A stretch of 62,246 nucleotides of DNA from Salipiger sp. IMCC34102 (GTDB lineage Bacteria > Pseudomonadota > Alphaproteobacteria > Rhodobacterales > Rhodobacteraceae), in contig NZ_SELQ01000012.1 of the NCBI RefSeq assembly GCF_004145405.1, forward strand, positions 1 to 62,246, read 5' to 3'. Position numbers and translations under genes: made by a program. The notes below the pieces were generated by a model. It saw only the letters and a list, made by a program, of their open reading frames with translations. It was not told the origin of the DNA and did no database searches. Of the stretch, positions 57,280-62,177 are shown piece after piece (within the stretch, counting starts at the first letter, position 1; the number at the start of each line of letters is the position of its first letter).

Positions 57280-57459
57280 ATGACACGCGTTCCCCATCCC
57301 AAGCAGCAAAAACCATCTGATCTCGATCGGATAGACCAGGCTATACTGTCCTTGGCTCGCCTCTTCGGAGAGGCAGAGGCGAACACGCGTCACCCTATTT
57401 CATCGGAAAAGGTGCGCACAGATGACCCGCAAGACGACTTCAGCGAACATTCAACTTAA
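57280..57459 (+). CDS. Possible small protein overlapping the helix-turn-helix gene
   Basis: This 59-residue frame (TRVPHPKQQKPSDLDRIDQA then ILSLARLFGEAEANTRHPIS) ends inside the following gene. It has a short helical middle and charged ends and resembles no known family. The ribosome site is weak. The overlap with the helix-turn-helix gene by 38 bases suggests coupling if it is real. Confidence 0.35.
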   Translation: MTRVPHPKQQKPSDLDRIDQAILSLARLFGEAEANTRHPISSEKVRTDDPQDDFSEHST

Positions 57460-57622
57460 AACGGTCAAGGAGGTCGCTTGTGAAGACAACGTGTCCGAGA
57501 AGACCGTTCGCCGAGCTATCGAGGCGGGCCTCTTGGAGGTGATCCGTGTCGGACCTTCGGGCCGACTTCTCCGGATCCATCCCGATGCGCATTCCGCCTA
57601 CCGCTGGCGCCTTCATCGCTAG
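57422..57622 (+). CDS. Small helix-turn-helix protein, excisionase-like
   Basis: This 66-residue DNA-binding protein has one MerR/excisionase-type helix-turn-helix: LKTVKEVACEDNVSEKTVRR, then AIEAGLLEVIRVGPSGRLLR and a basic tail (IHPDAHSAYRWRLHR). Size, wing pattern (GPSGRLLRIHPDA) and place directly before recombinase genes fit a recombination directionality factor or a small regulator of the operon. Confidence 0.75.
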   Translation: MTRKTTSANIQLKTVKEVACEDNVSEKTVRRAIEAGLLEVIRVGPSGRLLRIHPDAHSAYRWRLHR

Positions 57623-57668
57623 GGACGTACGGACACTAATGTCCATAAATGTCAAAGCGTTAGAGAGC

Positions 57669-59494: not shown

Positions 59495-60534
59495 GCCTTG
59501 TCCTGCCACCCATTGAGTGGCCCTGCGCCGATCAGACCATGTGGACCGCGCTCTGGAAGGTCGCCCACCCGTTGGACGATCCAGGCGCGTTTTCGCATCT
59601 GCGCAAAACCACCAAAATGTCACTGGAGCCCAAGTACGGCCGTTGGATCAAATGGCTCAGCGTCTATCAGCCCGACGCCCTTGCGCTGGCTCCGGCAGAG
59701 CGCGCCTCCCTGCCCCGCCTCAAAGCCTGGGTCGAAGCTCTTGGCTACACCCGTCCCATGACCCAGCTGGCGTTCGTCGATGGCGTTCTGCGTATCCTTC
59801 GCGCAGCTGCGCCGGACCACGATTGGACGCTGCAACTTCGGCTGCGGGCTACCCTCAAGCGCGCCGCCGGTCGGGGAGATCCAGCGCGCAAGCAGGGAAG
59901 GATTGTCGCGAGCAGCTTACTGCTTTCCGCTGGTCTCGCTTACGCCGACGGTGGCGCGACCCCGGCAACGAAACCTCTCGGACGCTTGATCCAGCATCGC
60001 GATGGCACGATGGTTGCCTTGATGGCCGTCCTCCCGATGCGCCTCCGCTCTTTCAGCGAACTGGCCCTCGGTCGATCCCTTCATGTTACGGACGACAGCA
60101 TCTTCGTTTCACTCTCTGCGGAGATGACCAAGACAGGCGTCCCTTGGGAGGCGGAGGTCCCGCGACAGGTCGAGCCTGTTTTGCGATCCTACATCACAGA
60201 AACGCGTCCGGCGTTGCTCAGGCGCGGTCAGCGTAACCACACTCTGCTGTGGGTCGGCAGGAAAGGTGAGAGTATCGATACGAACAGCATTCGGCTTAGA
60301 ATAAGCGAAGTGACCTTGAAGCAGACCGGCAAACGCGTCTCCCCACATCTTTTCCGGGATGCCGCAGCTACCAGTCTTGCGCGGATCTCTCCCGAAAGCG
60401 CACAGTTGATCCGACCGGTCTTGTCGCACGCAGGTTTTCGGACTGCGGAACGTCATTACATCCATGCCAGAACGATCGAGGCAGGGCGCGATTATGCCGC
60501 GCTCGTTGCCAGCAAGAAGGGGAAAGCCCGATGA
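59491..60534 (+). CDS. Tyrosine recombinase, second of two in the operon
   Basis: This 347-residue recombinase has an N-terminal helical domain and a catalytic domain with R in LPMRLRSFSELALG, the box HLFRD (the second H replaced by D), LSHAGFRT, and the tyrosine in ERHYIHARTIEAGRDYA. The H-to-D change is in a position that varies among recombinases, so activity is still possible. It overlaps genes on both sides by 4 bases. It is clearly different from the preceding recombinase and not a recent duplicate. Confidence 0.82.
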   Translation: MSLVLPPIEWPCADQTMWTALWKVAHPLDDPGAFSHLRKTTKMSLEPKYGRWIKWLSVYQPDALALAPAERASLPRLKAWVEALGYTRPMTQLAFVDGVLRILRAAAPDHDWTLQLRLRATLKRAAGRGDPARKQGRIVASSLLLSAGLAYADGGATPATKPLGRLIQHRDGTMVALMAVLPMRLRSFSELALGRSLHVTDDSIFVSLSAEMTKTGVPWEAEVPRQVEPVLRSYITETRPALLRRGQRNHTLLWVGRKGESIDTNSIRLRISEVTLKQTGKRVSPHLFRDAAATSLARISPESAQLIRPVLSHAGFRTAERHYIHARTIEAGRDYAALVASKKGKAR

Positions 60535-62177
60535 CCCGTGTCGCCATATATGCCCGGTACTCCTCCGCCATGCAAAAGGCCGCGTCGATCGAGGATCAGG
60601 TCAGGCTGTGCATGGAGCGGGCCGAGCGGAACGGTTGGACGGTTGGTCAAACCTATACCGACATGGCGATCTCCGGAGCCTCTCTGCACCGGCCGGGGCT
60701 TCAGAGCTTGATGGACGGAGCTGCGCGCGAAGGCCTTGATGTAGTGATATGCGAGGCGCTCGACCGGCTCAGCCGCGATCAGGCCGATGTCGCCACGCTC
60801 TACAAGCAGCTTTCGTTTCACGGTGTGCGCATCGAGACCCTGTCGGAAGGGGAGATCAGCGAACTGCACGTCGGCCTCAAGGGGACGATGAACCAATTGT
60901 TTTTGAAGGACCTGGCCGCCAAGACCCGTCGAGGTCTGCGTGGACGCGTGGAAGCTGGCAAATCTGGCGGCGGTAACGCGTATGGCTACGATGTGGTGCG
61001 CAGCCTCGGCCCGGATGGGCAACCCGTCACCGGAGAGCGGACGATCAATCCGACCGAGGCCAAGATCATTCTGCGCATATTTCGAGCCTTCGCTGACGGC
61101 ACATCGCCACTCGCCATCGCGCAAGACTTGAACACCGACGGCATCCCCGGTCCGCGAGGCAAACTCTGGCGCGATACCGCGATCCGGGGACATCGTGCCC
61201 GCGGTACGGGTATCCTGAACAACGAACTGTATCTCGGCCAGCTGGTCTGGAACCGACTGCGTTACATCAAGGATCCAGCGACGGGCCGTCGGGTGTCCAG
61301 GATGAACCCCGAGGCCGACTGGATCCGTCAGGAGGTTCCAGATCTGCGTATCGTGCCCGACGACCTGTGGCACCGCGTCAAGCGTCGCCAAGGCGAGATC
61401 GACGCCACACCTGCGGTCCAAGGCATTCGAAAGAGCCGGTTCTGGGAGAAGCGACGCGCCGAGCACCTTCTGACTGGCAAACTGGTTTGCGGGACCTGCA
61501 GCGGGACACTCACCGCAGTGGGCCGCGACTATCTGGCCTGCTCGAACGCGCGCAAACTCAAGACCTGTGATCAGCGCCAATCTTACCGACGCGGCCATCT
61601 CGATACCGCTGTTCTGGACCTTCTGCGGGACCGGCTCATGCAGCCCGAGGCGGTAGCAGAGTTCGTCAAATCCTATGGCGCAGAGGTCAACGCGGAGAGA
61701 AACAAGGAAGTCGAAGCGCGTAAGCACAGCCACGCAGCACTTGAAGAGACCGACCGCAAACTTACGGGTCTTTATGATGCGATTGCGGATGGATTGCGGA
61801 CCCCGGGCCTTCTCCAAAAGCTCGAAGAGACAGAGGCAAGGAAAGCGGATCTGCAGGCGCGCCTCGCGGCACCAGAGCCCTCGCCCGTCCGGCTGCATCC
61901 CGGGCTGTCGGACCTGTATCGCCGCAAGGTCGCGGACCTCGCGACGAGCTTGCAGGATCCCGCGATCCGCTCGAAGGCGCTCGAGACGCTTCGAGGCCTC
62001 ATCGAGCGCGTCACCGTACGTACGGATGCGGTGTCGGGTGAGCCAGTTCTGGAATTGGAGGGGGCGATCACCGCCATGATCGAGGAAGCATCGCCGGGCG
62101 CGCTTCGTGGTATCGATCAGTGTTCGTTTGAGTTGGTTGCGGGAGTAGGATTTGAACCTACGACCTTCAGGTTATGA
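60531..62177 (+). CDS. Large serine recombinase; C-terminus encoded by antisense of the tRNA
   Basis: This 548-residue recombinase has the catalytic N-terminal domain (YARYSS, with catalytic Ser 11), the recombinase domain (NAYGYDVVRSLGPDGQPVTG; LWRDTAIRGHRARGTGILNN), a zinc ribbon (LVCGTCSG and YLACSNARKLKTCDQR), and a C-terminal coiled coil. The last 20 or so codons lie within att and the tRNA gene: CSFELVAG is the repeat, and GVGFEPTTFRL is read from the antisense strand of the tRNA. The attachment site is therefore part of the coding sequence, so integration should alter the protein's tail. It overlaps the tyrosine recombinase gene by 4 bases. It is the likely integrase of the island. Confidence 0.92.
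   Translation: MTRVAIYARYSSAMQKAASIEDQVRLCMERAERNGWTVGQTYTDMAISGASLHRPGLQSLMDGAAREGLDVVICEALDRLSRDQADVATLYKQLSFHGVRIETLSEGEISELHVGLKGTMNQLFLKDLAAKTRRGLRGRVEAGKSGGGNAYGYDVVRSLGPDGQPVTGERTINPTEAKIILRIFRAFADGTSPLAIAQDLNTDGIPGPRGKLWRDTAIRGHRARGTGILNNELYLGQLVWNRLRYIKDPATGRRVSRMNPEADWIRQEVPDLRIVPDDLWHRVKRRQGEIDATPAVQGIRKSRFWEKRRAEHLLTGKLVCGTCSGTLTAVGRDYLACSNARKLKTCDQRQSYRRGHLDTAVLDLLRDRLMQPEAVAEFVKSYGAEVNAERNKEVEARKHSHAALEETDRKLTGLYDAIADGLRTPGLLQKLEETEARKADLQARLAAPEPSPVRLHPGLSDLYRRKVADLATSLQDPAIRSKALETLRGLIERVTVRTDAVSGEPVLELEGAITAMIEEASPGALRGIDQCSFELVAGVGFEPTTFRL
62120..62145. repeat. Right attachment site (26-bp direct repeat) at the tRNA 3' end
   Basis: Identical to 40141-40166. Twelve of its bases (62134-62145) are the 3' end of the tRNA gene, the others lie in the flank, and all 26 are inside the recombinase coding sequence. 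Confidence 0.9.

What the first reader, a model, noticed from the sequence alone, without database searches (positions are those of the whole stretch)
57422..62177. Overlapping operon mixing two tyrosine recombinases, an incomplete recombinase-like protein and a large serine recombinase
In the sequence, a helix-turn-helix gene is followed by a 214-residue recombinase-like protein lacking RHRY residues, two different intact tyrosine recombinases and a large serine recombinase; the last three overlap by 4 bases each. Known multi-recombinase elements (Tn554, recombinases-in-trio, GInt islands) use tyrosine recombinases only. Coupling to a serine recombinase that sits at its own att site suggests two chemistries acting in one element, for example one for tRNA integration and one for excision, inversion or resolution elsewhere. 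It is my best candidate for an undescribed system.
Basis: partly seen in the sequence, partly recalled or inferred. Interest (0 to 1): 0.85.

Follow-up and report, generated by a model that had tools for sequence, protein, structure and literature searches.

The report
tRNA island with two recombinase types
A mobile DNA island sitting in the initiator-tRNA gene of an alphaproteobacterium carries one operon joining a serine integrase, which the sequence evidence says inserts the island, to a pair of unrelated tyrosine recombinases that appear to act on a site of their own; this pairing recurs in other Alphaproteobacteria and we found no description of it.

Summary
The genes are real, but the '214-residue RHRY-less protein' is not a third recombinase. 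It lies in frame with the next gene, and in 25 of 30 rows the two read on as one ~570-aa tyrosine recombinase, Y1; a stop splits the window copy. The module is S (small protein), HTH, Y1, Y2 and a large serine recombinase (SR). SR follows Y2 in 27 of 28 genome-contig loci and in 8 of 12 class-sample genomes, window included; dN/dS is low. So it is no chance fusion, though both parts also occur alone.

SR is very probably the integrase. Integration splits a 46-bp SR-type attP within 12 bp at the 3' end of tRNA-fMet; empty paralogous sites in one relative confirm this, and a Y-less SR element shares block and layout. The island spans about 40155-62145, beside an older SR remnant.

The Y pair has its own candidate site, a ~57-bp dyad between HTH and Y1, with both halves together in 20 of 29 loci and cut by deletion in two. 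It probably resolves multimers or cointegrates (inferred). Eight literature searches (capped lists) showed no such operon. New variant of a known kind.

The parts
39653..40207 (+). C-terminal remnant of a second, older large serine recombinase running into the left copy of the 26-bp repeat
   Evidence: 31% identity over 181 aa to the SR C-terminus; next to an IS-like stretch that recurs in the genome
40155..40166 (.). attL identity block TGGTTGCGGGAG (direct repeat reaches back to 40141, 26 bp)
40167..40188 (.). left element end, half of attP with the arm ACCGAAC
   Evidence: same or nearly the same arm at the same distance in five other elements
40479..54337 (.). cargo: DUF305, DUF411, cytochrome c, MauE/glutaredoxin, ADH, Rrf2, FAD oxidoreductase, MFS transporter, old yellow enzyme
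   Evidence: ORFs, Pfam on ten of them
54914..56047 (-). PDC-S11 candidate defence gene (DUF4268)
   Evidence: PADLOC E 1.6e-158, Pfam
56303..57190 (+). up295, loosely conserved upstream protein, also on a Y-only plasmid (L160)
   Evidence: tblastn in related loci
57280..57459 (+). S, 59-aa protein (motif like LVRLLARQAARE); a similar ORF lies directly upstream of SR in 10 of 22 loci without adjacent Y
   Evidence: HMM search
57422..57622 (+). HTH protein, excisionase-like (sub-threshold TIGR01764)
57669..57727 (.). dyad ATTCGGGAAG...GTTCCCGAAT: candidate Y1/Y2 site and/or operator
57788..58432 (+). N-terminal part of Y1 (the finding's 214-aa protein), cut off by an in-frame stop
58442..59494 (+). 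core-binding and catalytic part of tyrosine recombinase Y1; catalytic R, K, HxxR, H, Y invariant in 16 relatives
59491..60534 (+). tyrosine recombinase Y2; R, K, HxxR, H, Y conserved
60531..62177 (+). large serine recombinase SR; stop codon lies in the tRNA anticodon loop
62134..62145 (.). attR identity block (direct repeat starts at 62120)
   Evidence: relative G050
62134..62210 (-). tRNA-Met(cat); called initiator tRNA here from its sequence and its place beside rRNA-operon tRNAs in relatives
   Evidence: ARAGORN, Rfam, neighbouring tRNA-Ala/Ile; the name initiator is my inference

Best explanation
The island is an integrative element whose large serine recombinase (SR) inserted it into the 3' end of tRNA-fMet. 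SR recombines a 46-bp attP at the end of its own gene with the tRNA's 3' end, within 12 bp that the two share, and so restores the tRNA. Upstream in the same operon are two tyrosine recombinases, Y1 (~570 aa; split in this copy) and Y2 (347 aa), with an excisionase-like HTH. They form a separate recombination system acting on its own ~57-bp dyad site between HTH and Y1, most likely to resolve multimers or cointegrates of the excised circle. Shown by sequence: gene order, conservation, integration site, att structure. Inferred: co-translation, catalysis, the Y site and its function, the roles of HTH and S.
For: SR as integrase: attL and attR share TGGTTGCGGGAG. In G050 the 90 nt left of attL match 82/90 and 81/90 the flanks of two intact tRNA-fMet copies of the same genome (empty sites). 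Five reconstructed 46-bp attPs have GTTCG/CGAAC outer arms and 15, 13, 12, 7 and 14 of 23 dyad matches (chance ~6); the last is the Y-less element G005. Of 22 SR loci without adjacent Y, 9 end in tRNA-fMet. Y as a separate system: both dyad halves lie together in 20 of 29 loci; hexamer-arm spacing 49 occurs in 9 of 20 modules against a mean of 1.2 per spacing, with other arm sequences in some; a Y module without SR lies beside ParA and rep genes on a plasmid. The Y1 model best matches XerA, Cre and XerH. dN/dS 0.10-0.27. In L020 an internal deletion ends within about 6 bp of the dyad centre, as cleavage there could leave it.
Against: No recombination product of Y1/Y2 was shown: no second copy of the site, no exchange at the dyad centre in the 12 pairs compared. 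Two loci, L020 and L039, have lost the right half of the dyad by deletion into Y1. The dyad overlaps a promoter-like TGnTA motif and could be an operator. 8 of 20 modules lack an exact 6-mer arm pair at spacing 47-52, and with four spacings pooled the shuffles reached the observed 11 of 20 at least once in 200. Left ends were found in only 6 of 15 joined or single stretches. G050 attP has 7/23 dyad matches; the SR of G005 has internal stops. Y1 is broken in the window and some relatives. Structural matches are weak (query TM-score 0.22-0.28).
Confidence: 0.6

Rival explanations
1. Y1/Y2 offer a second integration or cointegration route: their dyad site recombines with another plasmid or chromosomal site, and SR handles the tRNA.
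For: Y modules without an SR match occur on Roseomonas and Pukyongiella plasmids; by eye the site looks like a core with flanking repeats on both sides.
Against: Both dyad halves lie together in 20 of 29 loci; no second copy of the site in the 1.85 Mb then fetched. Split half-sites at element ends were not searched for specifically.
Confidence: 0.2
2. Y1/Y2 do not recombine DNA here but serve as DNA-binding helpers (directionality or regulation) of SR; the dyad is an operator.
For: Same operon as SR; extended -10-like motif inside the dyad.
Against: Full catalytic set conserved in Y1 and Y2; SR loci without adjacent Y exist at the same tRNA; Y modules occur without SR.
Confidence: 0.13
3. The tyrosine pair is the tRNA integrase and SR acts elsewhere.
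For: Tyrosine integrases commonly use tRNA genes (general knowledge); other elements in arrays at this tRNA have junctions at the anticodon loop.
Against: SR loci without adjacent Y use the same tRNA, and one has the same att layout; the anticodon-loop junctions border other elements of the arrays, where integrase-like genes are visible near some left ends (read from translations).
Confidence: 0.05
4. Chance side-by-side fusion of two elements.
For: SR and Y trees disagree in places, so parts are swapped; each part also occurs alone.
Against: SR follows Y2 in 27 of 28 and 8 of 12, window included; SR-Y2 distance correlation 0.91 over 31 loci, none of 500 permutations as high; low dN/dS.
Confidence: 0.03

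Closest known systems
phage phiPam-6 of Paracoccus aminophilus (PMC3925955, passages read)
   Same: mitomycin-inducible phage with a serine recombinase, in a tRNA-Met gene with 17-bp direct repeats
   Different: the passages mention no co-operonic tyrosine recombinases; its sequence was not compared here
GInt islands (ginABCD; PMC5385486, passages read)
   Same: operon of tyrosine recombinases plus a small DNA-binding-like protein; genomic island with cargo
   Different: three tyrosine recombinases; 'serine recombinase' 0 occurrences in the main text; 10-11 nt att repeats in the islands described; all four genes needed
Tn554-related elements with one long and one typical tyrosine recombinase (PMC3414803, passages read)
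   Same: adjacent long and typical tyrosine recombinase genes
   Different: no serine integrase in the passages read; here the element is a tRNA island
RIT elements (PMC3414803 and PMC8138268, passages read)
   Same: short 4-8 bp gene overlaps; RitA has two core-binding domains, and Y1 may have extra ones
   Different: three tyrosine recombinases and no serine recombinase in what I read
Xer/Cre resolution enzymes
   Same: best structural matches of the Y1 model
   Different: Y1 has ~200 extra N-terminal residues; low TM-scores (0.22-0.28 by query for the top 29) and large rmsd; function untested

Membership tests
large serine integrases | Resolvase + Recombinase + zinc-ribbon domains | tested here: met
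   phrog_95 E 1.6e-88
large serine integrases | catalytic Ser, Arg and the zinc cysteines conserved | tested here: met
   S11, R9, D78/R79, C320/323/337/346 invariant in 11 sequences; roles of the residues recalled
large serine integrases | short att sites with dyad arms and short shared core | tested here: met
   46-bp attP in five elements, 12-bp identity block; weak dyad in G050 (7/23)
large serine integrases | recombination activity | not testable with these tools
   needs an assay
tRNA-targeted genomic island | displaced flank at one end plus restored tRNA at the other | tested here: met
   shown for the relative G050 against two empty tRNA-fMet copies; in the window the left flank is another SR remnant
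RIT elements | three tyrosine recombinases in a row | tested here: not met
   two in relatives; the apparent third is the N-terminus of Y1
GInt | ginABC = three tyrosine recombinases plus GinD | tested here: not met
   two tyrosine recombinases plus one serine recombinase; gin sequences not compared
Tn554-like | TnpA, TnpB, TnpC homologues and no serine enzyme | not tested
   no Tn554 sequence was compared
Xer/cer-type multimer resolution | recombination of directly repeated sites to monomers | not testable with these tools
   needs an assay; no second copy of the site found in the fetched DNA

The most novel reading that the evidence does not exclude
A class of dual-chemistry integrative elements, old and widespread in Alphaproteobacteria, in which a serine integrase and a pair of tyrosine recombinases share an operon and divide the work: the serine enzyme inserts the element into initiator tRNA, the tyrosine pair recombines its own 57-bp dyad site on the circular or tandem form. 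The HTH-Y1-Y2 block would have been slotted between S and SR of an older S-SR integrase pair.
Probability: 0.45. Interest if true: 0.75.

Novelty: new variant of a known kind. Interest (0 to 1): 0.6.

Why it matters
Integrative elements are usually sorted by one recombinase type (general knowledge). A conserved operon of two unrelated chemistries asks why a serine integrase that also occurs alone is so often joined to a tyrosine pair under purifying selection, and gives a directly testable system: attP, attB and a candidate Y site can all be written down. It also points to a family of serine integrases aimed at initiator tRNA, a gene all bacteria have (general knowledge), of possible use in bacterial genome engineering. 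For annotation, it explains the VAGVGFEPTTFRL C-terminus of these SRs as antisense tRNA.

Tried and rejected
Rejected: a separate third, catalytically dead recombinase (split Y1). Rejected: the anticodon-loop junctions in five SR loci (L016, L019, L021, L027, L035) as SR crossover points; arrays in G153, G149 and G147 show borders with other elements there. Tried: 38200-40140 against relatives to find native chromosome left of the island; it mostly matched a repeated IS-like stretch, and the ORF beyond it is a second SR remnant. Tried: second copies of the dyad region (none outside modules); identity breaks at the dyad in 12 pairs: none at its centre, but L034 has a ~1.4-kb insertion between HTH and the dyad, and separately L020 and L039 have deletions ending in the dyad. 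Tried: Y2 in viral contigs (12 stretches, no relative confirmed) and in phage records (no match). Tried: left-end pattern in viral contigs: 13 stretches, one (L247) with an SR, followed there by an attP-like left end instead of tRNA. An early idea that a motif upstream of HTH is an SR operator was dropped: it is the start of gene S. Pattern GTTCGGT...TGGTTGCGGG in eight genomes gave two matches. Left ends were not found in the G073, G033, G149, G152 and G006 stretches or in the G147 and second G149 arrays; G078 gave the 12-bp core without the arm; the 27 shorter loci also scanned gave none, but reach at most 8 kb left of Y2.
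Full report
WHAT IS THERE. Y1 and Y2 match Pfam Phage_integrase, SR matches Resolvase, Recombinase and zinc ribbon; the 214-aa ORF matches nothing. SR runs antisense into a tRNA-Met(cat) and its stop codon lies in the anticodon loop, so its C-terminus VAGVGFEPTTFRL is antisense tRNA.

CORRECTION. The 214-aa ORF and Y1 are in one frame. In 25 of 30 rows with both parts the frame runs through the junction without a stop; only the window has an in-frame stop there; four rows change frame. 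Two genomes (G041, G050) are counted twice in the 30. Y1 is thus ~570 aa, with R405, K436, H506, R509, H533 and Y543 invariant in 16 sequences (numbering of L035; catalytic roles recalled). Y2 keeps R184, K214, R289, Y323 invariant and H286, H313 in at least 90% of 13 sequences. An AlphaFold model of the L035 Y1 (10 sequences, pLDDT 77, pTM 0.42) has two helical bundles before the core-binding and catalytic parts (naming of parts is mine); best PDB matches XerA, Cre, XerH, with low TM-scores. In the window Y1 is probably inactive or reduced; SR and Y2 are open.

CO-OCCURRENCE. Genome contigs, seeded with patterns from this Y2 and so biased to close relatives: 28 loci from 26 genomes, with titles I recall as Rhodobacteraceae; SR follows in 27, one contig ends too early. 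147 relatives: Y2 in 11 genomes; SR adjacent in 7 (G000, G050, G041, G034, G134, G038, G042), not in G031, G127 or G104; in G001 no SR in the ~0.4 kb before the contig ends. Class sample, 385 genomes: Y2 model in 12; SR downstream in 8, the window's genome included (1 kb away in G475), none in G104, G127, G453, contig end in G175. Phylum sample, 299 genomes: G000 and G713, both Alphaproteobacteria; no SR beside Y in G713. Only the top candidates per genome were scored, so counts are lower bounds. SR alone is commoner: 25 of 147 genomes match at 1e-60, Y adjacent in 7 (a diverged Y could be missed). In-frame ATGA/GTGA/TTGA junctions: Y1/Y2 23 of 45, Y2/SR 23 of 37 rows scored, some genomes twice. 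Distances: SR-Y2 r 0.91 (31 loci), SR-Y1 0.88 (27), Y1-Y2 0.96 (31); within Rhodobacteraceae SR-Y2 only 0.66 (24). In a FastTree tree (support not examined) Y-bearing SRs are not one clade, so the block was gained, lost or swapped more than once. dN/dS in six pairs: Y1 0.11-0.24, Y2 0.11-0.27, SR 0.10-0.17 (five pairs).

INTEGRATION BY SR. Exact repeats of the tRNA 3' end mark left ends. A regex for the identity block plus the ACCGAAC arm found six left ends in 15 stretches, one per element and none elsewhere: window 40155, G154, G148, G050, G153, and the Y-less G005. In G050 the flank left of attL matches the flanks of two intact tRNA-fMet copies of the same genome (82/90, 81/90), and identity is exactly TGGTTGCGGGAG. 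The joined ends give a 46-bp attP with GTTCG/CGAAC arms in four Y-bearing elements and the Y-less G005, whose own SR has internal stops. In the window the shared stretch is 26 bp, since the left flank is itself an SR end. Of 22 SR loci without adjacent Y, 9 end in tRNA-fMet, 2 more in its 3' half (L122, L128), 2 in other tRNA-Met(cat), 1 at tRNA-Phe. Of seven Y-SR loci outside the family, G134, G475 and G334 end in the antisense tRNA-fMet sequence; G471 and Azospirillum have a broken SR frame with a tRNA-Met nearby; G157 and G290 do not end in the tRNA.

TWO KINDS OF JUNCTION. tRNA-fMet is a hot spot: G153 holds seven tRNA 3' ends over about 217 kb, G149 three and G147 two; the last of each is the whole tRNA, the others stop at the anticodon loop. 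The SR element is the leftmost of those marked in each. The others carry prophage-like or island genes, some with an integrase-like gene near the left end (read from translations, no family scan).

THE Y SITE. The HTH-Y1 gap is conserved over ~200 bp in 20 aligned loci, including a plasmid copy without SR. It holds a dyad: TCGGGA...TCCCGA, 55 bp outer to outer, with a small central palindrome in some. Diverged modules keep the span with other arms (L211, L213) or nearly so (L214, L215). Spacing 49 between hexamer starts: 9 of 20 modules, mean 1.18 (s.d. 1.35) over spacings 6-149; modules are related, so this is not a probability; pooled spacings 48-51 gave 11 of 20, shuffles mean 3.2, maximum 11. 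Of the window and 28 genome-contig loci, 19 have the whole dyad by a strict pattern and L034 with a changed arm; L018, L019, L025, L036, L037 and L041 do not include the region; none was found in L040; L020 and L039 keep only the left half, by deletions into Y1 that end within about 6 bp right (L020) and about 8 bp left (L039, by eye) of the centre. So the site is not split by integration as attP is. It may be the Y1/Y2 site, an operator, or both.

S AND ORDER. S lies before HTH in Y-SR elements. An HMM from 14 of these finds an ORF ending 0-90 bp before SR in 10 of 22 loci without adjacent Y (E 6.5e-6 to 0.11; three other hits: one 472 bp upstream, two elsewhere; 1956 ORFs). So HTH-Y1-Y2 looks inserted between S and SR, or S-SR was closed up after loss.

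Y WITHOUT SR. No SR match near Y on Pukyongiella p4 (beside ParA and a replication initiator) and two Roseomonas plasmids. An Azospirillum plasmid has SR after Y2; in A. oryzae the Y2 and SR hits lie side by side.

LITERATURE. Eight searches of open papers listed 25 of 182, 3 of 3, 20 of 79, 13 of 13, 15 of 95, 15 of 35, 2 of 2 and 15 of 239 papers; none of those listed is about such an operon by title or start of abstract. I read passages of PMC5385486, PMC3925955, PMC3414803 (also one section), PMC8138268, PMC6907783 and PMC12884075. Subscription papers are not held.

Noticed in passing
window 39653-40207: Remnant of an older serine integrase ending at the same repeat: the window holds two SR elements in tandem.
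   Followed up: partly
window 38293-39645: IS-like stretch repeated in this genome and relatives, next to the SR remnant.
   Followed up: partly
window 54914-56047: PDC-S11 candidate defence protein (DUF4268) inside the island.
   Followed up: no
L079-L090 (G153): Several elements in tandem at one tRNA-fMet, tRNA 3' ends spanning about 217 kb; inner borders stop at the anticodon loop.
   Followed up: partly
L020 368-479 and L039 2153-2260: Two internal deletions that remove the right half of the HTH-Y1 dyad and part of Y1, with one end near the dyad centre.
   Followed up: partly
L140 (G031): Y module and an N-terminally shortened SR at opposite ends of a 14-kb contig in opposite directions.
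   Followed up: no
L247 1753-1786: Metagenomic viral contig where an SR relative (45%) is followed by an attP-like left end instead of a tRNA, then another integrase-like ORF.
   Followed up: partly
L202 (G000:C46:1341-2147): A second, distant pair of Y-like recombinase matches in the window's own genome.
   Followed up: no
L019 and L030 (G149): Two copies of the Y2-SR end 99.96% identical in one chromosome, one truncated inside Y1.
   Followed up: partly
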